64,000 nucleotides of DNA from positions 186,001 through 250,000 of the forward strand of contig NZ_JAUXOV010000038.1 in the NCBI RefSeq assembly GCF_030684215.1, written 5' to 3'. The stretch's first letter is position 1, and each line of letters begins with the position of its first letter. This DNA comes from Pseudotabrizicola sp. Lineage in GTDB: Bacteria; Pseudomonadota; Alphaproteobacteria; Rhodobacterales; Rhodobacteraceae. Both the position numbers and the translations under genes were made by a program. Below are positions 5,788 through 57,329 of the stretch, in pieces. The notes beneath the pieces are model-generated. The model ran no database searches, had not been told where the DNA came from, and saw only the letters and a list, made by a program, of their open reading frames with translations.

Positions 5788-7248
5788 TCAGGTGCGGAAC
5801 AGATCCTGTTCAACACCCGCCGCCTCGAACAGATAGTCGCGGCTCGCCTCCAGCTCGGCCCGCAGTTTGGCGATGTCATGGCCCAGCATCATACCCTGCC
5901 ACTTGCGCACCACGCCCGCGCAGATCACGGTCGACACGTTGGACCGCTCCATCAGCGTGACCACGGCCCCCGGCACATGGTTGAGTGGGGCCACGTTCAG
6001 CGCGGTTGCGTCCAGCAGGATGATATCGGCCTCTTTGCCCGGAGTCAGGGTACCGGTTTTATGATCCAGCTTCAGACCCTTGGCCCCTTCCACCGTGGCA
6101 AAGCGGATCACGTCCAGCGCCGACAGCAGCTTTGGATACTCCTCGCCCCGCAGCGCCTTTTCGTTGGCGATCATCCGTTGCAGCGTGATGGTGGACCGCA
6201 TCTGCGTGAACATATCCGCCGTCATGGTGCATTCCACATCGGTCGAAAGCGACGGCTGCATCCCCATATCCAGCGCCTGTTGCAGCGGCGGGTTGCCATG
6301 GCGCATCTGCATCTCGATCGGCACCGAAAGCGAGATATGCGCCCCCGCATCCGCCGCCGCCTTCCATGCCAGATCGCTCATCCCCGTCATATGGATGAAG
6401 ATGTTATCAGGGCCAAACTTCCCCGCCATCGCCAGCCCGTCAAAGGTCGGCTGCATGCCGAACGTACCCACCACATGCAAGGCAATCGGAATGCTCAACT
6501 CCCGCCCTATGGCCCATGCTTCCTCGTGGAACGGCAGATAGATCTCGCCCCCCATAACCATCGACAAAAGCTGGTTATCACTCGAGAAATGCTCGGTTTT
6601 TACCCGTCGCGCGTCGCCCGGATACTTGGCCAAATCGCCCCAGCCTTCAAAGTATCCCAGCACCGCCCGGCGTCCGGTATCGCGCAACGCACTGATCGCG
6701 GCGTCGGTGTGTTCGGGGCTGTGATGGATCTGGCTGACATCCATCACCGTGGTCACACCCGCATCAATCTGTGCGATGCCGCCGAACAATTCCGAAATAT
6801 AGACATCCTGCGGCCGATACAGCACCGAGAACTTTTGGAGCATCCATTCGTAATAGTTGGCAGTGCTCTCCGGGCGGCCATCGTTGACCAGAATCGCATC
6901 CGACAGCAGACTGCGCAGGGCGGTTTCAAACTGGTGGTGATGGGTGTCGATGAACCCCGGCATCACCACATGGCCGGTGGCATCAATCACGGCCGCGTCG
7001 CCCGCGTCGATCTGCGCCGCGACGGCCACGATCTTTGCCCCTTCCATCAGCACATCTCCCTTGGCAAAGTTGCCCACAGCGGCATCCATCGACAGCACAT
7101 GACCGCCCCTGATCAGCGTGCGCCGACCCGGCTGGCCGATCCCCACTGGCATGGGCGCTACCGACAGGGCACCCACAGCCGGGCGCGTGGCAGACGCGCC
7201 GCCGCTGTCAGCCGGGGCCTTGGTACGGGTATCACAGACTTTGCACAT
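5788..7248 (-). CDS. Amidohydrolase-superfamily hydrolase (deaminase-like), substrate unknown
   Basis: A 486-residue metal-dependent hydrolase of the TRZ/ATZ and nucleobase-deaminase branch. The N-terminal beta sandwich is followed by the metal-binding DTHHH (H103 and H105), later histidines in IALHVVGT and IFIHMTGMS, an active-site Asp in LSTDVECT, and the C-terminal return to the sandwich (TGTLTPGKEADIILL). Relatives hydrolyse C-N bonds in nucleobases or s-triazines. The N-terminus has an unusual CKVC pair and about 40 low-complexity residues. The neighbours (ring-cleavage dioxygenase, IclR regulator) suggest that it prepares a nitrogen-bearing ring compound for cleavage; that is inference. 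A TTCG-N5-CGAA palindrome lies 20 bases before its start. Confidence 0.85.
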   Translation of the reverse strand: MCKVCDTRTKAPADSGGASATRPAVGALSVAPMPVGIGQPGRRTLIRGGHVLSMDAAVGNFAKGDVLMEGAKIVAVAAQIDAGDAAVIDATGHVVMPGFIDTHHHQFETALRSLLSDAILVNDGRPESTANYYEWMLQKFSVLYRPQDVYISELFGGIAQIDAGVTTVMDVSQIHHSPEHTDAAISALRDTGRRAVLGYFEGWGDLAKYPGDARRVKTEHFSSDNQLLSMVMGGEIYLPFHEEAWAIGRELSIPIALHVVGTFGMQPTFDGLAMAGKFGPDNIFIHMTGMSDLAWKAAADAGAHISLSVPIEMQMRHGNPPLQQALDMGMQPSLSTDVECTMTADMFTQMRSTITLQRMIANEKALRGEEYPKLLSALDVIRFATVEGAKGLKLDHKTGTLTPGKEADIILLDATALNVAPLNHVPGAVVTLMERSNVSTVICAGVVRKWQGMMLGHDIAKLRAELEASRDYLFEAAGVEQDLFRT

Positions 7249-7267
7249 CCCTTAATCCTCCCAGATT

Positions 7268-7280
7268 TTCGTATAGCGAA
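7268..7280. promoter_or_regulatory. TTCG-N5-CGAA palindrome upstream of the amidohydrolase gene
   Basis: TTCGTATAGCGAA lies 20-32 bases before the amidohydrolase start, in the 85-base gap after the IclR gene. The same 13-base pattern occurs before the citryl-CoA-lyase-like gene (9093-9105). IclR-family regulators bind short palindromes of this size, so it is a candidate operator for the adjacent IclR protein. A further half site, TTCGCATTG, follows at about 7288. Confidence 0.5.
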
Positions 7281-7333
7281 ATTTTGTTCGCATTGATCAC
7301 AAGACAAAGATCGCCCTCGCAAAAGGGCCGGCC

Positions 7334-8152
7334 CTAGCGCGTGTCAAAAACCGCCGAAAGTGCCGGCACCCGCGCCGCCGCGGCACCAATCCGGCTAGCC
7401 GCCGCGCGCAAATCGGCTAGGCGGTTGGCAACCATCTCATCCGGCGTCACCATCCCAGAATATCCCGATGAATTCAGAGCGGCCACGACATGCCCTTCAG
7501 CACATCGAATGGGCACTGCCAAGGCGGTAATCCCGTAGTCCAACTGATCGACCGTGGTAGCAAATCCCGTCTCGCGCACCTGATCCACCAGCGCCCGCAG
7601 CGCCACTTTGCTGGTCACGGTGCGTGAGGTCAGGGCCACCGGCGTCATAGCCGCCAGCGTCCGCTCCAGTGCCGCGTCATCCAAGCCCGCCATGAGCACC
7701 CGCCCCAGACTGGTGGCATGTGCCGGATAGCGCGCGCCCACCACCGCCGTTGCCCGCCGCGCGCGTTGGGTGGAATGATGCGCAATATAGATCACATCGG
7801 CCCCGTCCAGCATCGCAACAGAGGCGGCATCGCCATGCGCCTCGACAATCTTGCGCAGTTCCGGCAGCAGCAATTCATCAATACGGGCGGCGAAATAGAA
7901 CCCCGACCCAAGACTCATGACCTTTGGCCGCAGATGAAACCGCTTGCCGTTCTGGCCCACGTAGCCAAGCGCGCCCAGCGTGATCAGACTGCGCCGTGCA
8001 GCAGCGGGTGACAGTCCGACGCGACGAGCGATCTCTGAAAGGGTCATGTCGGGATGGGCGGCATCAAAACATTCCAGCACCGCCAGCCCCTTGGCCAGCG
8101 CCTCGACAAACTCTGCCGGCCGTTCCGATTCCATCGTGCCACTCCCGTCCAT
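7334..8152 (-). CDS. IclR-family transcriptional regulator (PcaR/PobR-like)
   Basis: A 272-residue regulator with an N-terminal winged helix-turn-helix (about residues 15-75, KGLAVLECFDAAHPDMTLSE then SPAAARRSLITL) and a C-terminal effector-binding domain ending near SGYSGMVTPDEM. The pattern is that of the PcaR/PcaU/PobR branch, which controls protocatechuate and other aromatic pathways in response to aromatic or ring-cleaved acids. It starts three bases after the stop of the dioxygenase gene, so the two are cotranscribed. It is the likely reader of the two TTCG-N5-CGAA sites in this cluster. Confidence 0.9.
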   Translation of the reverse strand: MDGSGTMESERPAEFVEALAKGLAVLECFDAAHPDMTLSEIARRVGLSPAAARRSLITLGALGYVGQNGKRFHLRPKVMSLGSGFYFAARIDELLLPELRKIVEAHGDAASVAMLDGADVIYIAHHSTQRARRATAVVGARYPAHATSLGRVLMAGLDDAALERTLAAMTPVALTSRTVTSKVALRALVDQVRETGFATTVDQLDYGITALAVPIRCAEGHVVAALNSSGYSGMVTPDEMVANRLADLRAAASRIGAAAARVPALSAVFDTR

Positions 8153-8155
8153 GAC

Positions 8156-9016
8156 TTAACCCTCTGGTGCAAGAACGAAATCAAAGCGGCACTTGGCATC
8201 CGGCTTTTGTTCGGTTGCGGGAAGGGTGTCGGTCTTTTTCACTGGTTCCAGCTTGGCGATCAATGATTTTCGCACCCCGAAGACCGCGTCATTGTCGATG
8301 TATTCGGTGTTTTCAAAGAAAAGCTCGGTCGTAATGGCGCGGTAGCCTTTGGCGCGCACGATGTAGTGCAGATGCGCTGCCCGCCATGCGTGCCGGTTTC
8401 CCGCTCGTAACAGATGCCCCACGGGGCCATCATAGGGCACGGTGTACGGTTTGGGCAGCACTGTGGTATACCAATATTCACCAATATCATTGGTGGTGAT
8501 CAATCCGCGCAGATCATACTTGTTCTGTCCTGAAGCTTGCTCCTGAATAGGATACGTGCCCGACCCATCCGCCTGCCATGTGTCAATCAACGCCCCCGCC
8601 AGCGGGTTTCCCAGCGAATCACGTACCACGCCATGCACCAGAATGGTCGCCCCATCGCGCCCCTTGGCCAGATCGCCCCCCAAGTCCAACGTGGGCGCAT
8701 TGTCCAGATAGAACGGGCCAAGGTTCGATCCTTCGGTCGATCCGCCACGGGTATTGATCATGTCAACCAGCGCAGACAGACCCAGCACATCCGACAGCAA
8801 GATGAACTCATGCCGCTCAGGCGTTGATATCTGCCCGCAATCGTAGAGGAACATCAGAATACCCATCCACTCCTCATGGGTCATGTTCACTTCGCGGGTA
8901 TAGTCGTGCAGATGGTCAATGAAACCCTCGAGCAGAAATTTGAACCGGCTGCCCTCTTTTGTCCGGAACGACTCTTTGACCGCTTCTGCCAGTGTGAACT
9001 GATTGATCTCTTTCAC
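8156..9016 (-). CDS. Intradiol ring-cleavage dioxygenase (hydroxyquinol/catechol 1,2-dioxygenase type)
   Basis: A 286-residue non-haem iron(III) dioxygenase. The N-terminal helical dimerisation domain (about 1-100) carries the family stretch SNLGPFYLDNAP, followed by the beta-sandwich catalytic domain. The expected ferric ligands are visible: Tyr155 (GSGTYPIQ), Tyr191 (LPKPYTVPYDGP), His215 and His217 (AAHLHYIV). Family members cleave catechol or hydroxyquinol between the two hydroxyls to muconate or maleylacetate; the N-terminal style favours the hydroxyquinol group. No maleylacetate reductase is nearby, so the fate of the product is open. The start is a GTG at 9016 with GGGGGAG about eight bases upstream. 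Confidence 0.92.
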   Translation of the reverse strand: MKEINQFTLAEAVKESFRTKEGSRFKFLLEGFIDHLHDYTREVNMTHEEWMGILMFLYDCGQISTPERHEFILLSDVLGLSALVDMINTRGGSTEGSNLGPFYLDNAPTLDLGGDLAKGRDGATILVHGVVRDSLGNPLAGALIDTWQADGSGTYPIQEQASGQNKYDLRGLITTNDIGEYWYTTVLPKPYTVPYDGPVGHLLRAGNRHAWRAAHLHYIVRAKGYRAITTELFFENTEYIDNDAVFGVRKSLIAKLEPVKKTDTLPATEQKPDAKCRFDFVLAPEG

Positions 9017-9092
9017 GGCGTAGCTCTCCCCCGGAAATCTGCTGTTGACGGAAAGTTAGAACGCTCCATAATATTCGGCAAGTGAATTTTTA

Positions 9093-9105
9093 TTCGCAAT
9101 GCGAA
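9093..9105. promoter_or_regulatory. TTCG-N5-CGAA palindrome upstream of the citryl-CoA-lyase-like gene
   Basis: TTCGCAATGCGAA ends 14 bases before the ATG at 9120, next to the ribosome-binding site. It shares TTCG-N5-CGAA with 7268-7280. A repressor bound here would block the rightward operon, and the 103-base divergent gap would let it act on the dioxygenase promoter too. Confidence 0.5.
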
Positions 9106-9119
9106 AAGGGAAGCCCGCA

Positions 9120-9896
9120 ATGAGGATCGGAAAGCAGGACAACGCCCGGACGGCCATTGCCACGTCGGACGAGGATTCGATCACCGTGCGGGGCCATGAT
9201 CTGGTATCAGACCTGATCGGGGAGATCGACTTTACCGACTACTTCTGGCTCTTGGTCTGCGGGATACGCCCGACCGACACCCAGAAAACGATGATGAACG
9301 CCTGTCTGGTGGCGATTGCCGAACATGGGCTGGTGCCTTCGGTTCAGGCCGCACGGATGACGCTGGCCGCCGCGCCCGAGGCATGGCAGGGCGCGATGGC
9401 GGCCGGGCTGTTGGGCATGGGGTCGGTGGTGGCCGGTTCTTCGGAAACGGCGGGGCGCTATCTGGTCGAGGTTGTCGCCGCAGGCGGCGACGAGGCCGCC
9501 GCTGTCGCCTCACTTGAAGCCCTGAAAGCCGCGCGCCAGAAGGTGCCCGGCCTTGGCCATCCGCAGCATAGCTCGGGCGATCCACGCGCAGAAAAACTGC
9601 TTGAAATCGCAGACAAAATCGGTGTGTCCGGCCAGCATGTAACGGCCTTGCGTCTTCTGGGGGCCAAGGCGCCCGGCATCATGAACCGCCCGCTGCCAAT
9701 CAACGTCTCGGGCGCGATCCCGGCGGTGATCCTTGATGCAGGCTGGCCGCTGGAGGCGATGAAGGCCGTACCGCTGCTCGCCCGTGCCGGTGGACTCGCC
9801 GCGCATCTGTACGAAGAATCGCAGCGCCCCATCGGTTTCATCCTGTCGCACAACGCCGATCTGGCGATTACCTACGACGGGTTGACCACGAAATGA
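9120..9896 (+). CDS. Citrate-synthase-superfamily protein, citryl-CoA lyase-like
   Basis: A 258-residue protein of the citrate synthase fold, shorter than a true citrate synthase (about 420). It keeps the citryl-CoA lyase and ATP-citrate-lyase C-terminal signature: GLGHPQHSSGDPRAEKLLEI (the His-containing CoA/citrate segment) and VSGAIPAVILDAGWP. Such enzymes split a 3-hydroxyacyl-CoA of the citryl type into acetyl-CoA and an oxoacid, or run the reverse. It overlaps the following CoA-transferase gene by four bases, so the pair may activate an acid and then cleave it. The start at 9120 has AAAGGGA upstream; an ATG at 9099 lies inside the operator-like palindrome. Confidence 0.8.
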   Translation: MRIGKQDNARTAIATSDEDSITVRGHDLVSDLIGEIDFTDYFWLLVCGIRPTDTQKTMMNACLVAIAEHGLVPSVQAARMTLAAAPEAWQGAMAAGLLGMGSVVAGSSETAGRYLVEVVAAGGDEAAAVASLEALKAARQKVPGLGHPQHSSGDPRAEKLLEIADKIGVSGQHVTALRLLGAKAPGIMNRPLPINVSGAIPAVILDAGWPLEAMKAVPLLARAGGLAAHLYEESQRPIGFILSHNADLAITYDGLTTK

Positions 9897-11041
9897 GGCC
9901 GCTCAGGAACATCCGCGTCATCGAAATGGGCACCTATATCACCGGCCCTGCGGCGGCTATGCAATTGGCCGATCTTGGCGCCGATGTGATCAAGGTCGAA
10001 CGCCCCGGCGAGGGCGACCCGTTCCGCGCCTTCAAAGGCGGGCTTTATTCCCCGCATTTCCAAACCTACAACCGCAACAAACGCTCTATCGCGCTTGATA
10101 CCAAAGCACCCGAAGATCTAGCTGTGTTCAATGATCTGATCGCGAGCGCGGATGTGTTCATCCAGAATTTCCGCCCCGGCGTGGCCGAGAAACTGGGCGC
10201 AGGCGAGGATGATCTGCGCGCCATTAATCCGCGCATCATCTATTGCGCCATTTCCGGCTTTGGTACGTCGGGTCCGGCCCGCGACCGGCCGACCTATGAC
10301 ACAGTGGCGCAAGCGGCCAGCGGATTCCTGCGTCTGATGACACCGCCCACCAACCCGCGGGTGATCGGCCCGGCCATCGCCGATGCGGTCACCGGGCACT
10401 ATGCCGCGACCGGCATCCTCGCCGCTCTGGTAGACCGAGGGCAAACCGGAAAGGGCAGCCGGCTTGATATCTCGATGCTCGAGGCAATGTGCCATTTCAA
10501 TCTGGACAGCTTCACCCATTTTTACTCGGTGAACGAGGTGATGGGCCCGCTGTCCCGCCCCGTGGTCAGCCAGTCCTACACCTTTGAATGTGCCGACGGG
10601 AAATGGGTTGCCATCCACATGTCCAGCCCGCCAAAATTCTGGACCGGATTTTTGGAAGCGACCGCCCAGCCCCACCTGGCGACCGACCCTCGCTTTGCCG
10701 ACCGGTTGGAGCGGATCAAGCATCAGGACGACCTGATCAGCCTTATGACACCAATCTTCAGACAGAAGCCCCGGGATCACTGGTGCGCCGCACTCGAGGC
10801 TGCCGAAGTCCCCTATGCCCCCGCCTATGACAGCGATGAAGCGCTGGAGGATCCGCAGGCCCGCCATCTCTGCATCAAGGTCAGTGCCGACCATGCGCAG
10901 ATGGGCACCTTCACCACCGTCCGCGCGCCCTACAGCTTTGACGGCGCGGCCCACACCACCGTTTTGCCGCCGCCCTTGCTTGACCAGCACGGGCAGGAAA
11001 TACGGAAGGAACTGGCGCGGATCAAGGCAGGCTTCACCTGA
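9893..11041 (+). CDS. CaiB/BaiF class III CoA-transferase
   Basis: A 382-residue class III CoA-transferase. It has the N-terminal IRVIEMGTYITGPAA and ADLGADVIKVERPGEGD motifs, the catalytic Asp region in GKGSRLDISMLEAM, and the tail of the two-domain interlocking dimer. These enzymes move CoA from a donor such as succinyl-CoA to an organic acid. The four-base ATGA overlap with the lyase-like gene implies coupled translation. The acceptor is unknown; an acid derived from ring cleavage is the simplest proposal from context. Confidence 0.92.
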   Translation: MRPLRNIRVIEMGTYITGPAAAMQLADLGADVIKVERPGEGDPFRAFKGGLYSPHFQTYNRNKRSIALDTKAPEDLAVFNDLIASADVFIQNFRPGVAEKLGAGEDDLRAINPRIIYCAISGFGTSGPARDRPTYDTVAQAASGFLRLMTPPTNPRVIGPAIADAVTGHYAATGILAALVDRGQTGKGSRLDISMLEAMCHFNLDSFTHFYSVNEVMGPLSRPVVSQSYTFECADGKWVAIHMSSPPKFWTGFLEATAQPHLATDPRFADRLERIKHQDDLISLMTPIFRQKPRDHWCAALEAAEVPYAPAYDSDEALEDPQARHLCIKVSADHAQMGTFTTVRAPYSFDGAAHTTVLPPPLLDQHGQEIRKELARIKAGFT

Positions 11042-53936: not shown

Positions 53937-54029
53937 GGCTAGATTCTCGTGTAAGCTGGCTAATGTTTTGATTTCGCAAACGAGGATCGTTAATGTGCAA
54001 AACGTAGAACAAATTTTGGAATAAACTAG

Positions 54030-54875
54030 ATGCTCAAATCTTGCCGCAGAGGATTTTCTTCAGTTGGGTCGCTTTTTTCTAAGAACCTTCCATTTCTAAT
54101 TTTCATATGCGCCGCCGCTCTTTGGGTGATTTGGGCGCTGTTTTCACAATTTATCTTTGGAAAAATATTCGATGATGAGCGCTTTGAAGTAATTGGACAG
54201 TGGGGAGACTCTTTTGGTGCACTGAACGCGCTTATTTCAATTTTTGGTTTTACAATGGTTGTTCAGACTTTGACAGAACAACGAAAAGCGTCTGCTAGAC
54301 AAGCAGAAGATACACACATCCAACGTTTTGATGAGAATTTTTTTGAGTTGCTGCGCTTGATGCGAATTGTGCGAGAGGAAGTTACGTTTTCTTACTCACC
54401 CGGCTACCTCAAAGCTAGAAACTTAAATCGAAACCCAAAGTTAACTGCTGCTCCAAGGACGGGCAGAAAAGCGTTTGTTGCATCTGTTTTGGAATTCAAC
54501 CACTGGGCAAAACTGTCTAATTCGCCAAAGCAAACAAGCCAGACGCTATCGATAATTTACTTATCCCGCATACACAACAGAAGTGAAAGCACGCTAGCTC
54601 CATACTTCCGGCTAGTTTACACTATTTTGGGAAAGTTGCGTGATGATACAATTCTGTCTGACGCACAGAAGGCTGAATATGGAAACATTCTGCGCAGTCA
54701 ACTCACAAGTACTGAAATAAAGCTCATCGCAATAAATGGCCTTGCTCCAATTTCAAAAGATATGCGTGACTTGATTGTCCAATTTCGATTACTTAAGTAT
54801 CTGCCTCTTGGTAAGACCCGAAAGCTACTTTGTGAGATGTACCCGCCAGAGGCGTTTCTGGCTAGAGAAAGCTGA
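54030..54875 (+). CDS. Putative phage abortive infection protein (putAbiC-like)
   Basis: A 281-residue protein with two N-terminal membrane helices (about 20-43, LPFLIFICAAALWVIWALF; and 61-80, SFGALNALISIFGFTMVVQT), then a helical cytoplasmic domain with RFDENFFELLRLMRIVREEV, APYFRLVYTILGKL and YGNILRSQLTSTEIKLIAIN. This layout is that of the putAbiC family. The gene is strikingly AT-rich against its GC-rich neighbours and uses codons such as AAA, TTT and AGA freely, so it was probably acquired. Anti-phage activity is inferred from family naming only. Confidence 0.7.
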   Translation: MLKSCRRGFSSVGSLFSKNLPFLIFICAAALWVIWALFSQFIFGKIFDDERFEVIGQWGDSFGALNALISIFGFTMVVQTLTEQRKASARQAEDTHIQRFDENFFELLRLMRIVREEVTFSYSPGYLKARNLNRNPKLTAAPRTGRKAFVASVLEFNHWAKLSNSPKQTSQTLSIIYLSRIHNRSESTLAPYFRLVYTILGKLRDDTILSDAQKAEYGNILRSQLTSTEIKLIAINGLAPISKDMRDLIVQFRLLKYLPLGKTRKLLCEMYPPEAFLARES

Positions 54876-55278
54876 ATTTGCTAAGAGTCTATCTGAATAA
54901 CCATATTTGTTCAGATTTCTTTTCATCGTTCTGAGTTACTCAAAGTTCAGGCCGTAAGGAATTTTAAGTGGTGTTTGTGTAATCTTTGTTAAACTAATTC
55001 AGTCTCCACACAAGGCCGCGCCCGACCTCGGGATGACGCGGCCACGCCAGTTCTAGGCACCTTATTCATCCCCCCACCTCCCCCGAAGTTCTAGGCGCAC
55101 CCGTTGCAACGCGCCCTCCCGGGGGGAGGTCCACTCTCGGCGATTGTAAAGACAATCGCCTGTCGAGCGGTGGGGCGCGGCCCGGCGGCGTTAAAGCGCC
55201 TTGATTCCGGGCCAAGAGAAGAAGACGTAGGGCGGATCATCCCCGCGCCTGCGAGTGAAACAACTTACCACAAGCCCC
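54876..55278. other. AT-rich to GC-rich boundary after the putAbiC-like gene
   Basis: No supported gene in about 400 bases. Bases 54876-55005 remain AT-rich and look like the end of the insert. Then GC content rises sharply. The 10-bp direct repeat AGTTCTAGGC occurs at 55049-55058 and 55087-55096. GCGATTGT-AAAG-ACAATCGC forms an 8-bp stem at 55140-55159. No integrase or tRNA is near. Confidence 0.5.
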
Positions 55279-55692
55279 CTACTCCCCCCGCCCCGCCCGC
55301 CGCAGATCCGCCTCCAACGCCGCCCGGTCGCGCCGCGCCCGCTCCTCCAAGCCCGCCACCTCCTCCTCCGTGCGGTAGGGCGCAGAATAATCCACCGCCT
55401 CCGGCCCCTTGATCACCCCCGCCAGACGGGCATGCATAAAGGTAGACAGCACCTCGGCCATGCGTGTCGTGTGCCCGGCCCCCATGCTGCGGAAAAACCG
55501 CAGCACGTCGGCCTGCACCCACAGCGTCAGCTTGACCTTGCGGCCAGCGCCCACACCTTGCGCGATGGCGTGCCACTCCTCGGGCACGGCCTCCGCGCCG
55601 CGTGCGGACCCGTGCAGCGCGCGTTCCAGACTGCGCAGCCCCTCGGCCATCCGGTGATAGCTGGCGTTACGATTATCGTCCCCTTTTGTCAT
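55279..55692 (-). CDS. BrnA-like antitoxin family protein (orphan)
   Basis: A 137-residue protein with a central ribbon-helix-helix of the BrnA/DUF4415 type: KVKLTLWVQADVLRFFRSMG, then TRMAEVLSTFMHARL. BrnA proteins normally pair with the RNase toxin BrnT and repress their own operon. No BrnT-like frame is found on either side here, so it is an orphan regulator or a relic. The C-terminus (TEEEVAGLEERARRDRAALE) is an added coiled helix. Confidence 0.72.
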   Translation of the reverse strand: MTKGDDNRNASYHRMAEGLRSLERALHGSARGAEAVPEEWHAIAQGVGAGRKVKLTLWVQADVLRFFRSMGAGHTTRMAEVLSTFMHARLAGVIKGPEAVDYSAPYRTEEEVAGLEERARRDRAALEADLRRAGRGE

Positions 55693-55756
55693 GGCGCACC
55701 TCCGCCGCCAGACTGCATCACAACCGCCGCAAAACGGGTAAACAGCCCGCGCGCTG

Positions 55757-55777
55757 ACGTCATGACGCAGGCCATAC
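55757..55777 (+). repeat. Copy of a 21-nt interspersed sequence (second copy at 5661-5681)
   Basis: ACGTCATGACGCAGGCCATAC here matches the stretch at 5661-5681 with one mismatch (G versus C at the eighth base), given here in two parts: ACGTCATG and ACGCAGGCCATAC. It lies in the divergent region between the BrnA-like gene and rhlE, just upstream of a CCTATAAAAAC stretch that may be a promoter. Confidence 0.7.
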
Positions 55778-55927
55778 GCAAGCCATACCCGAACCCTATA
55801 AAAACCAGACCCTTGACTTCTGCCACAAAAACCCTCATTTCCCCCCTATCCGAAGCCCGTGCCGCGTGAGCACCGAAAGGCCCGGATACAGGTTCCCACC
55901 ATCACGCAGGGGCGCCGACGGCGCGCA

Positions 55928-55970
55928 CGGTCTCCCAAATTGTTGGGGGGCGAGGACCGCCTGCTTTTTG
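55928..55970 (+). promoter_or_regulatory. Terminator-like hairpin in the rhlE leader
   Basis: CGGTC-TCCC (55928-55936) can pair with GGGG and GACCG (55955-55959), followed by CCTGC and TTTTTGTTT. It sits only about 20 bases before the rhlE start codon, where a terminator would end transcription before the gene unless it is opened. Confidence 0.4.
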
Positions 55971-55988
55971 TTTGATGGAACGACCCAA

Positions 55989-57329
55989 ATGACCACTTTT
56001 GCCGATCTTGGCCTCAGCGACAAGCTGCTGAAAGCCCTTGAGAAAACCAACCTTCAGACGCCGACGCCCATTCAGGCGCAGGCGATCCCCTATATCATGC
56101 AGGGCCGCGACCTGATGGGTCTGGCCCAGACCGGCACCGGTAAAACGGCAGCCTTCGGTCTGCCGCTCTTGCACCGCTTGCTCGATATCGGCCACCCGCC
56201 TGGCCCAAAGAACGTGCGCGCCCTGATCCTTGCGCCGACGCGGGAATTAACCTTGCAAATCAAGGACAACCTTGAAGTCTTCACCAAAGGCACGCCCGTA
56301 AAAGTGACGATGGTTGTGGGCGGAGCATCGCTGTTTCGGCAGGCGCAAGCCCTGTCCAAAGGCACCGATGTTCTGGTCGCCACCCCCGGTCGTCTGATCG
56401 ACCTGCTGGAGCGCGGCGATGTAAAGCTCGACCAGTGCGGCTATCTGGTGCTGGACGAGGCCGACCACATGCTCGACATGGGCTTCATCCATTCCTTGCG
56501 TAAAATCGCCAAGCACATTCCGCTGAAACGCCAGACCCTTCTGTTCAGCGCGACGATGCCAAAGGATATCTCAGAGATTGCAGACACTTACCTGCGCGAC
56601 CCGATCCGTGTTCAGGTCACCACCGCAGGCAAAACCGCCGACAAGGTGACGCAAGGCGTGCACTTCCTGCCCAACGGCGACAAGGCCCGCGTGCTGGAGG
56701 ATTACCTCAAGAAGCACCCGACCGAACAGGCGCTGGTCTTTGGTCGCACCAAGCACGGCTCGGAAAAGCTGATGAAACTGCTGGCGGGCTGGGGATTCAA
56801 GGCCGGGTCCATCCACGGCAACAAATCGCAGTCGCAACGCGACCGCACCCTGACCGAATTCCGCAATGGCGAGTTGGATGTGCTGGTGGCAACCGATGTC
56901 GCCGCGCGCGGTATCGACATTCCGACCGTGCGCCATGTCTATAACTTTGACATGCCCAACGTTCCGGAAAACTATGTCCACCGCATCGGCCGCACCGCGC
57001 GCGCCGGGGCCGAGGGAACGTCGGTCAGCTTCTGCGCACCCGCTGAAATGGGCGAATTGCAAGCGATTGAAAAGCTGCTGAAAAAGCCTCTGCCGATCCT
57101 TGGCGGTGCGCCTTGGGCGGCTGATATCGTGGCGGCGGCACCCAAGCCCGGTCAGAACCGCGGCCAACGCCCTGCCCGTCCGCAAGGTGGCCGCCCACAA
57201 GGCGCAAAACCTGCTGGATCAAAGCCGCAGCAGGCACGTCCGGCCGCCAAGCCAAAGCCCATGGGTGGCGGCAACGCACCGCGCCGGGCTGAAGGTGGCA
57301 AGCCAGCGGGACAGCGCCGGACTAGCTGA
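55989..57329 (+). CDS. rhlE: DEAD-box RNA helicase (RhlE-like)
   Basis: A 446-residue RNA helicase. Motifs in order: Q motif (FADLGLSDKLLKAL), Walker A (AQTGTGKT, near 42-49), PTRELTLQI, TPGRLIDLL, DEAD in VLDEADHMLDMG, SAT, and HRIGRTARAG. A glycine-rich basic tail after residue 375 (RGQRPARPQGGRPQG) is typical of RhlE-group helicases and binds RNA. They act in RNA decay, ribosome assembly and cold growth. A hairpin with a T run lies in its leader. Confidence 0.9.
   Translation: MTTFADLGLSDKLLKALEKTNLQTPTPIQAQAIPYIMQGRDLMGLAQTGTGKTAAFGLPLLHRLLDIGHPPGPKNVRALILAPTRELTLQIKDNLEVFTKGTPVKVTMVVGGASLFRQAQALSKGTDVLVATPGRLIDLLERGDVKLDQCGYLVLDEADHMLDMGFIHSLRKIAKHIPLKRQTLLFSATMPKDISEIADTYLRDPIRVQVTTAGKTADKVTQGVHFLPNGDKARVLEDYLKKHPTEQALVFGRTKHGSEKLMKLLAGWGFKAGSIHGNKSQSQRDRTLTEFRNGELDVLVATDVAARGIDIPTVRHVYNFDMPNVPENYVHRIGRTARAGAEGTSVSFCAPAEMGELQAIEKLLKKPLPILGGAPWAADIVAAAPKPGQNRGQRPARPQGGRPQGAKPAGSKPQQARPAAKPKPMGGGNAPRRAEGGKPAGQRRTS

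What the first reader, a model, noticed from the sequence alone, without database searches (positions are those of the whole stretch)
5788..11041. Unusual catabolic cluster joining intradiol ring cleavage with CoA-transfer and citryl-CoA-lyase-type cleavage
An amidohydrolase, an IclR regulator and a hydroxyquinol/catechol-type dioxygenase face a divergent citryl-CoA-lyase-like gene and a class III CoA-transferase. Standard intradiol pathways continue with maleylacetate reductase or with muconate cycloisomerase and 3-oxoadipate genes, none of which are here. The set suggests: C-N hydrolysis of a ring substrate, ring opening to a polycarboxylic acid, CoA activation, then retro-Claisen/aldol cleavage to acetyl-CoA plus an oxoacid. 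I know no described pathway with this combination.
Basis: partly seen in the sequence, partly recalled or inferred. Interest (0 to 1): 0.72.

Follow-up and report, generated by a model that had tools for sequence, protein, structure and literature searches.

The report
Conserved ring-cleavage and CoA-lyase operon
Five neighbouring bacterial genes look like one jointly controlled pathway that opens an oxygen-rich aromatic ring, attaches coenzyme A and then splits the chain, and related bacteria repeatedly carry a quite different ring-opening enzyme in the same set, a clue to what the ring is.

Summary
The five genes are real and form a conserved unit. Of 80 named lyase relatives, 31 have exactly the window's layout. 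In 198 genomes of the window's family (own included) the dioxygenase at >=70% identity is in 12; all 12 also carry the lyase, 11 side by side. A palindrome, TTCGC-N3-GCGAA, lies in the divergent promoter (9093-9105) and upstream of the lyase in most relatives: probably one regulon.

(1) 23 of the 80 loci have a LigAB-type extradiol dioxygenase instead of the intradiol one (43 loci); none has both, and the tree needs nine changes. Both cleavage types should give the same product from a vicinal triol (pyrogallol/gallate type). LigM/DesA-like O-demethylases beside four relatives fit. (2) The 'citryl-CoA lyase' has the right fold but lacks citrate synthase's catalytic Asp (all 135 rows) and one catalytic His (all but two rows).

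Best reading: vicinal-triol ring cleavage, CoA transfer, then C-C cleavage by an altered citrate-synthase-fold enzyme. Substrate, intermediates and amidohydrolase role are unproven. Ten paper searches, seen as capped listings, showed no description.

The parts
5788..7248 (-). amidohydrolase-superfamily enzyme (NF006056/PRK08204 subfamily); no Tat signal seen here, unlike 20 of 50 relatives
7268..7280 (.). candidate second operator TTCGTATAGCGAA (one mismatch), just upstream of the amidohydrolase gene; exact sites lie at this position in six relatives (L065, L066, L070, L081, L083, L084)
   Evidence: one-mismatch matches are at chance level in the window (5 found, 4.3 expected), so this rests on position and relatives
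7334..8152 (-). IclR-family regulator, nearest NCBIfam model PcaR/PcaU/PobR (below its cut-off)
8156..9016 (-). type I intradiol dioxygenase, hydroxyquinol-1,2-dioxygenase-like; Y155, Y191, H215, H217 invariant in 44 of 44 rows; Asn98 where the five best solved relatives have Val
9045..9072 (+). conserved promoter-like -35 TTGACG (9045-9050) and -10 CATAAT (9067-9072) for the lyase gene
   Evidence: alignment of 10 relatives
9093..9105 (.). palindrome TTCGCAATGCGAA in the divergent promoter, candidate IclR operator; one of only two exact matches in the genome
9120..9896 (+). stand-alone citryl-CoA-lyase-like protein (citrate synthase fold) lacking the catalytic Asp and one catalytic His; ORF listed from 9099, conserved start at 9120
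9893..11041 (+). class III (CaiB/BaiF) CoA-transferase; overlaps the lyase gene by 4 bases; Asp of the iaDavTGhY block invariant in 83 rows

Best explanation
The five genes form one inducible catabolic unit, probably under the IclR regulator. The dioxygenase opens the ring of a vicinal triol (pyrogallol/gallate type, in relatives probably derived from a methoxylated aromatic by LigM/DesA-like or perhaps MetE-like demethylases) to a hydroxymuconate-type dicarboxylic acid. The CoA-transferase puts CoA on one carboxyl. The citrate-synthase-fold 'lyase' then breaks a C-C bond, giving acetyl-CoA and an oxaloacetate-like keto acid. Because it lacks the residues that enolise acetyl-CoA in citrate synthase but keeps those that hold oxaloacetate, it probably works by a changed mechanism, with the clade's extra histidine (GHPxH, His157) as a candidate acid/base. 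The amidohydrolase acts at the edge of the pathway: release of the substrate (it is exported in many relatives) or opening of a pyrone-type by-product. Shown here: gene identities, co-occurrence, layout, conserved palindrome, enzyme exchange, residue losses. Inferred: regulator binding, substrate class, order of steps, products, amidohydrolase role.
Against: No substrate, intermediate or activity is known to me for any member. The equal-product argument is chemistry, not a test; the intradiol and extradiol versions might serve different rings. Gallate is a poor substrate for one related intradiol enzyme (0.02, against 0.59 for pyrogallol and 2.78 for hydroxyquinol; PMC9204233). No hydratase is obvious in the window, though a 3-hydroxyacyl-CoA-type substrate would need one. 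The window's genome gave no MetE-like hit (no positive control) and only weak TRAP paralogues. Loss of the catalytic Asp could mean that no C-C cleavage occurs at all. 14 of 80 loci carry neither dioxygenase (some cut by contig ends), 5 of 22 extradiol loci lack the palindrome, and in G402 dioxygenase and lyase are on different contigs.
Confidence: 0.5

Rival explanations
1. Hydroxyquinol-type variant. The ring carries a 1,2,4-pattern (hydroxyquinol, or 1,2,3,5-tetrahydroxybenzene, which is also a vicinal triol). Cleavage gives a beta-keto acid (maleylacetate or 2,4-dioxoadipate); its CoA ester is split hydrolytically (retro-Claisen) to acetyl-CoA plus maleate or oxaloacetate, bypassing maleylacetate reductase.
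For: Three of the dioxygenase's five best solved relatives are named (chloro)hydroxyquinol dioxygenases. A beta-keto ester would need no hydratase. In a Burkholderiales plasmid cluster (L152) a FAD hydroxylase, an intradiol dioxygenase, lyase and CoA-transferase stand with LeuCD-like genes, and LeuCD-like genes are also near the lyase in L132 and L151; LeuCD homologues can hydrate maleate (recalled). Oxaloacetate-side residues of the lyase are kept.
Against: Hydroxyquinol itself does not explain exchange with a LigAB-type extradiol enzyme; only the tetrahydroxy form does. Asn98, invariant in 44 rows, differs from the Val of the five best solved relatives. No LeuCD gene is among the window's neighbours.
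Confidence: 0.2
2. The substrate is not a plain phenol but a cyclic enone or N-bearing ring (for example a mycosporine-like compound or hydroxypyridine) whose C-N bond is cut first by the amidohydrolase.
For: The amidohydrolase is near the lyase in 31 of 43 intradiol and 19 of 23 extradiol loci, its relatives include deaminases, many copies carry a Tat signal and TRAP genes are close by in many loci.
Against: No direct evidence of nitrogen. In L097, L108 and L110 an O-demethylase stands in the amidohydrolase's place. One paper search on mycosporines listed nothing relevant among the 10 shown of 198.
Confidence: 0.12
3. Two unrelated halves that share a divergent promoter: an ordinary hydroxyquinol-type dioxygenase on one side, a separate CoA-ester pathway on the other.
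For: More distant lyase relatives occur without ring-cleavage genes nearby, beside acyl-CoA dehydrogenases or a PaaK-like ligase; G402 has the halves on different contigs.
Against: 12 of 12 family genomes with the dioxygenase also have the lyase; shared palindrome; the replacement enzymes keep the company of the same lyase and transferase; Sinorhizobium B11 and Aminobacter MSH1 have lyase, CoA-transferase and LigAB-type genes in one direction.
Confidence: 0.07
4. The lyase-like protein is a degenerate or ordinary citrate-synthase relative with no role in the pathway.
For: Two of three catalytic residues are missing; the genome has a full citrate synthase elsewhere.
Against: It is kept at about 60-85% identity in 80 named loci and 78 of these have the CoA-transferase nearby, all but L103 and L113; the oxaloacetate-side residues and a clade-specific His are nearly invariant.
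Confidence: 0.06

Closest known systems
Gallate / syringate catabolism (DesA-LigM O-demethylases, GalA/DesB dioxygenase, 4-oxalomesaconate route)
   Same: LigM/DesA-like demethylases and a LigAB-type dioxygenase nearest to gallate dioxygenase occur in clusters of relatives
   Different: The known route ends with a hydratase and an aldolase to pyruvate plus oxaloacetate (PMC10512348 passage) and uses no CoA (recalled); here a CoA-transferase and lyase-like protein follow, and the window has an intradiol enzyme
Hydroxyquinol pathway (hydroxyquinol 1,2-dioxygenase plus maleylacetate reductase)
   Same: Dioxygenase family and iron ligands
   Different: No maleylacetate reductase beside it; Asn98 replaces a Val; CoA-transferase and lyase instead
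Beta-ketoadipate pathway (cat/pca)
   Same: PcaR/PcaU-like IclR regulator (below cut-off), intradiol cleavage, CoA transfer, acetyl-CoA as likely end product
   Different: Class III CoA-transferase (the pathway's own is of another class, recalled); no thiolase, cycloisomerase or lactonase among the five; the genome has pcaCHG elsewhere
Citryl-CoA lyase / ATP-citrate lyase core / citrate synthase
   Different: Catalytic Asp is Ser, Asn, Thr, Gln or Val in all 135 rows and the first catalytic His is Val, Ile or Phe in all but two
Itaconate/citramalate-type degradation (class III CoA-transferase plus a C-C lyase; recalled)
   Same: CoA transfer followed by retro-aldol-type cleavage to acetyl-CoA and a keto acid
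   Different: The lyase there is of the CitE family (recalled), and there is no ring cleavage

Membership tests
Type I intradiol dioxygenase (hydroxyquinol group) | Two Tyr and two His iron ligands | tested here: met
   Y155, Y191, H215, H217 invariant in 44 of 44; ligand roles recalled
Type I intradiol dioxygenase (hydroxyquinol group) | Val before the F/L-G-P-F block, as in the best solved relatives | tested here: not met
   Val in 5 of 5 solved relatives shown, Asn in 44 of 44 here
Type I intradiol dioxygenase (hydroxyquinol group) | Activity on hydroxyquinol | not testable with these tools
   needs an assay
Citryl-CoA lyase / citrate synthase | Fold and family score | tested here: met
Citryl-CoA lyase / citrate synthase | Catalytic Asp (E. 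coli D362) | tested here: not met
   Ser in the window; no Asp in any of 135 rows, about 114 distinct places because some loci were fetched twice; NVD in the three solved relatives shown
Citryl-CoA lyase / citrate synthase | Catalytic His (E. coli H264) | tested here: not met
   Val in the window; His only in L022 and L030 of 135 rows. The ATP-citrate lyase rows also lack this His, so it is the weaker of the two tests
Citryl-CoA lyase / citrate synthase | Catalytic His (E. coli H305) and oxaloacetate-binding R314, R387 | tested here: met
   conserved in alignment with GltA; H305 equivalent in all rows but L023, R387 equivalent in all but L030
Class III CoA-transferase | Pfam CoA_transf_3 and the catalytic Asp (formyl-CoA transferase D169, recalled) | tested here: met
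   PF02515 356.8 bits; Asp invariant in 83 aligned rows
PcaR/PcaU/PobR regulators (TIGR02431) | score over the curated cut-off | tested here: not met
   235.5 against 284.75
Hydroxyquinol pathway | maleylacetate reductase beside the dioxygenase | tested here: not met
   none among the seven neighbours scanned; genome-wide inconclusive, because the query was not itself a maleylacetate reductase
Gallate (gal/des) pathway | gallate dioxygenase plus hydratase, tautomerase and aldolase genes in the cluster | tested here: not met
   not among the seven neighbours scanned; LigB-type gene not found in the genome at E 1e-70; other gal genes not searched genome-wide
PRK08204 amidohydrolase (NF006056) | score over the curated cut-off | tested here: met
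   403.9 against 391; the model is named 'hypothetical protein'

The most novel reading that the evidence does not exclude
An undescribed aerobic aromatic pathway in which a vicinal-triol ring is opened interchangeably by an intradiol or an extradiol dioxygenase, and the product is finished by a citrate-synthase-fold enzyme that has lost its acetyl-CoA-enolising residues and become a new kind of C-C cleaving (for example hydrolytic retro-Claisen) CoA enzyme, so that a whole clade now named 'citryl-CoA lyase' is misnamed.
Probability: 0.35. Interest if true: 0.78.

Novelty: new variant of a known kind. Interest (0 to 1): 0.62.

Why it matters
Repeated exchange of two unrelated dioxygenase families within one otherwise constant operon is a natural experiment that strongly narrows the chemistry of an unknown substrate and makes the pathway directly testable. 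If right, it adds a CoA-dependent ending to aerobic breakdown of vicinal triols (lignin S-unit or tannin type) in scattered soil and marine Alphaproteobacteria. It also shows that the stand-alone 'citryl-CoA lyase' relatives examined here lack the catalytic Asp of the enzyme they are named after.

Tried and rejected
Two unrelated halves: set low on co-occurrence, synteny and the shared palindrome. Ordinary cat/pca function: benABC over their cut-offs with another dioxygenase of this family, and pcaC, pcaH, pcaG over theirs, lie on other contigs. Ordinary citrate synthase: the full one is elsewhere. Maleylacetate reductase genome-wide: inconclusive, since the query itself (L035 Fe-ADH) matched other alcohol dehydrogenases. 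MetE-like gene in the own genome: nothing found, without a positive control. TRAP: only weak paralogues of the neighbour DctP. The second exact palindrome in the genome lies between a TRAP operon and a sensor/response-regulator pair (named by eye from the reading frames; no NCBIfam hit for the binding protein), left as a lead. The neighbour TRAP binding protein's solved relatives were too distant to suggest a ligand. The exact palindrome is rarer in the genome than its reversed control (2 places against 10 per strand).

Literature: ten searches. I saw listings only, several of them cut (for example 20 of 41, 10 of 198); none of the papers listed was about this gene set by title or abstract start, and the last search returned no paper. 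I saw passages only of PMC2864759, PMC12366328, PMC6628648, PMC9204233 and PMC10512348, and no paper in full. PMC2864759 says that CH34 lacks citryl-CoA lyase in the reverse-TCA sense, although a relative of the lyase lies on its megaplasmid. The library lacks most subscription journals, so absence there is weak.

Recalled, from no call: roles of E. coli citrate synthase residues, formyl-CoA transferase D169, equivalence of human ATP-citrate lyase Asp1026 to D362 (PDB titles show D1026A entries holding substrates), LeuCD acting on maleate, PnpC being a hydroxyquinol dioxygenase, iron-ligand roles, steps of the known pathways other than those in the passages.
Full report
WHAT IS THERE. The window holds five ORFs as described: amidohydrolase 5788-7248(-), IclR regulator 7334-8152(-), intradiol dioxygenase 8156-9016(-), citryl-CoA-lyase-like protein 9099-9896(+) with its conserved start at 9120, and class III CoA-transferase 9893-11041(+). 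Left of it lie PutA and an AsnC/Lrp-like frame (by eye). Right of it are a 2-hydroxyacid dehydrogenase, a CsaA-like protein and ProC on the opposite strand. PutA, the Lrp-like frame, the dehydrogenase and CsaA were searched for in the relatives and recur rarely (putA at 65% identity in L050; weak matches in a few others); ProC was not searched for. The window lies at G000:C32:186001-250000 of a 4.44 Mb genome. One genome of its family, G402, shares a contig length (518,791 bases) with L113, Pseudoroseicyclus tamaricis, and the nearest lyase/transferase relatives are Rhodobacter-type, so the window is probably from a Rhodobacteraceae member (inference).

THE UNIT IS CONSERVED. 31 of 80 have the exact five-gene layout, 41 of 80 have IclR-dioxygenase facing lyase-transferase, and 16 of 80 have LigA-like, LigB-like, amidohydrolase and IclR facing lyase-transferase. 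These are biased to close relatives. The less biased test is the family sample of 198 genomes in 197 genera, the window's own included: lyase at >=70% identity in 13 (five further genomes have matches at 47-52%), dioxygenase at >=70% in 12 (18 further genomes at 45-48%), all 12 within the 13. By position 11 of the 12 are side by side; in G402 they are on different contigs, and there the dioxygenase lies next to a MetE-like gene. Fisher's test gives 2.4e-18, uncorrected for kinship. In the class sample of 385 genomes, 56 have some lyase relative at 1e-10, but only G000 and G040 have the dioxygenase above 47% identity, both beside the lyase.

ENZYME EXCHANGE. Of the 80 loci, 43 have the intradiol dioxygenase, 23 a LigB-type extradiol dioxygenase and/or its small partner, none has both and 14 have neither, counted within 6.5 kb of the lyase at >=55% identity (>=60% for the small partner). 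Some of the 14 are cut by contig ends. The small partner is LigA-like (profile comparison probability 83%, E 8.7e-6, against one LigA sequence). The LigB-type protein is nearest among solved structures to gallate dioxygenase (E 6.5e-20), then protocatechuate 4,5-dioxygenase. In the family sample only G540 has the LigB-type gene at E 1e-70, and it is the one lyase genome without the intradiol gene. On a tree of joined lyase and CoA-transferase (79 rows: 44 intradiol, 24 extradiol, 11 neither), intradiol against extradiol needs 9 changes; the extradiol group against all other rows needs 9, at least 8 of them forced by supported branches (quick method; L129 has a very long branch). The other genes recur with both types, at differing rates: CoA-transferase 43 of 43 and 23 of 23, IclR 41 and 21, amidohydrolase 31 and 19, DctP 30 and 21, FMN reductase 28 and 11, YciI-like protein 21 and 20, MetE-like protein 18 and 5.

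WHY THIS POINTS TO A VICINAL TRIOL. Intradiol and extradiol enzymes normally cut different bonds. With three adjacent hydroxyls, the bond next to one diol lies inside the other, so both give the same dicarboxylic acid (chemistry, inferred). Published passages fit: an intradiol enzyme gives 2-hydroxymuconate from pyrogallol (PMC9204233), and extradiol GalA gives 4-oxalomesaconate from gallate (PMC10512348). Independent support is the demethylases: L097, L108 and L110 carry a DesA/LigM-like gene where the amidohydrolase usually is (L097: 514 and 463 bits, both under the equivalog cut-offs 800 and 580; the other two by 83-95% identity to it), and in G540 a protein over the LigM cut-off (606 against 580) lies downstream of the cluster. 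That model is named vanillate/3-O-methylgallate O-demethylase. The MetE-like protein may be a second demethylase; that is a guess.

REGULATION. The gap of about 100 bases between the divergent genes holds a conserved TTGACG/CATAAT promoter and the palindrome TTCGCAATGCGAA. A site with at most one mismatch lies within about 160 bases upstream of the lyase in 39 of 42 intradiol, 17 of 22 extradiol and 12 of 16 other loci, against 0.012 expected per stretch from the same loci; the 16 are the 14 with neither enzyme plus L098 and L112, which were not in the tree. Exact copies also lie before the amidohydrolase in six relatives and before the O-demethylase in three. In the whole genome the exact motif occurs at two places, this one and C80:9424 beside a TRAP operon. 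In the window alone, one-mismatch sites are at chance level (5 found, 4.3 expected), so the site at 7268-7280 rests on its position and on relatives. That the IclR protein binds the motif is inference.

OUTSIDE THE CLOSE RELATIVES. Plasmid records show the same theme with other parts. Aminobacter MSH1 pUSP2: FMN reductase, IclR, TRAP, hydrolase, MetE-like, lyase, CoA-transferase and the LigAB-type pair in one region. Sinorhizobium B11: IclR, oxidoreductase, lyase, CoA-transferase, LigAB-type pair, amidohydrolase. Burkholderia glumae: intradiol dioxygenase, lyase, FAD hydroxylase, CoA-transferase, LeuC, LeuD. Cupriavidus necator N-1: lyase, AMP-binding ligase, intradiol dioxygenase, IclR, CoA-transferase, LeuCD. 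More distant lyase relatives sit beside acyl-CoA dehydrogenases or a PaaK-like ligase, so the lyase family as a whole is not tied to aromatic rings.

AMIDOHYDROLASE. It belongs to a subfamily whose model is named only 'hypothetical protein'. By my reading of the N-termini, 20 of 50 reading frames have a twin-arginine signal; the script's motif flagged 26, of which six are a GRR further inside the protein. The window's copy (read) and its nearest relatives (L049-L052, L054, L055, L057) show none. It may free the substrate outside the cell in some hosts, or open a pyrone in others; [quoted passage not shown] Neither is shown.

VERDICT. Observation confirmed; interpretation partly supported. Best reading: a vicinal-triol ring-cleavage pathway with a CoA-dependent ending and an altered citrate-synthase-fold enzyme. 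It is a new variant of a known kind, with the lyase chemistry as the part that could prove more novel.

Noticed in passing
G000:C80:9424-9436 (L245:9424): The only other exact TTCGC-N3-GCGAA in the genome lies between what looks like a TRAP transporter operon and a sensor-kinase/response-regulator pair; it may be the pathway's importer or chance.
   Followed up: partly
L033:7724-8272, L128:4293-4835, also L032, L034 and L127: In lyase loci without the window-type or LigB-type dioxygenase (L032 has a canonical LigAB cluster nearby), a conserved single-domain VOC protein of about 180 aa stands with lyase and CoA-transferase, mostly also with an FMN reductase, a TonB receptor and MetE-like genes; it could be a third, unrelated ring-cleavage enzyme.
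   Followed up: partly
L124:3494-4546, L129:12980-14005, L241:10035-11051: A short MetE-like protein (PF01717) recurs with the cluster and stays with the dioxygenase in G402 even where the lyase is on another contig; it is a candidate for an unknown demethylase.
   Followed up: partly
L152:8116-14810, L132, L151: Burkholderiales clusters join an intradiol dioxygenase and the lyase with a CoA-transferase and LeuCD-like genes, plus an AMP-binding ligase in L132 and L151.
   Followed up: partly
L054:3854-6541 and L055: A FAD-dependent aromatic hydroxylase and a second intradiol dioxygenase (about 40% identity) lie directly beside the five-gene set.
   Followed up: partly
L036, L037, L040, L042-L044, L047, L048, L204-L208: Other lyase relatives (41-57% identity) are paired with or near a PaaK-like CoA ligase of about 440 aa; those examined also lack the catalytic Asp.
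   Followed up: partly
L155, L160, L162: Lyase relatives on Sulfitobacter, Rhodococcus and Ochrobactrum plasmids sit among acyl-CoA dehydrogenase and MaoC or enoyl-CoA hydratase genes, so the name 'citryl-CoA lyase' covers several pathways.
   Followed up: no
window 54001-56000: G+C falls to 0.53 against about 0.6 around it.
   Followed up: no
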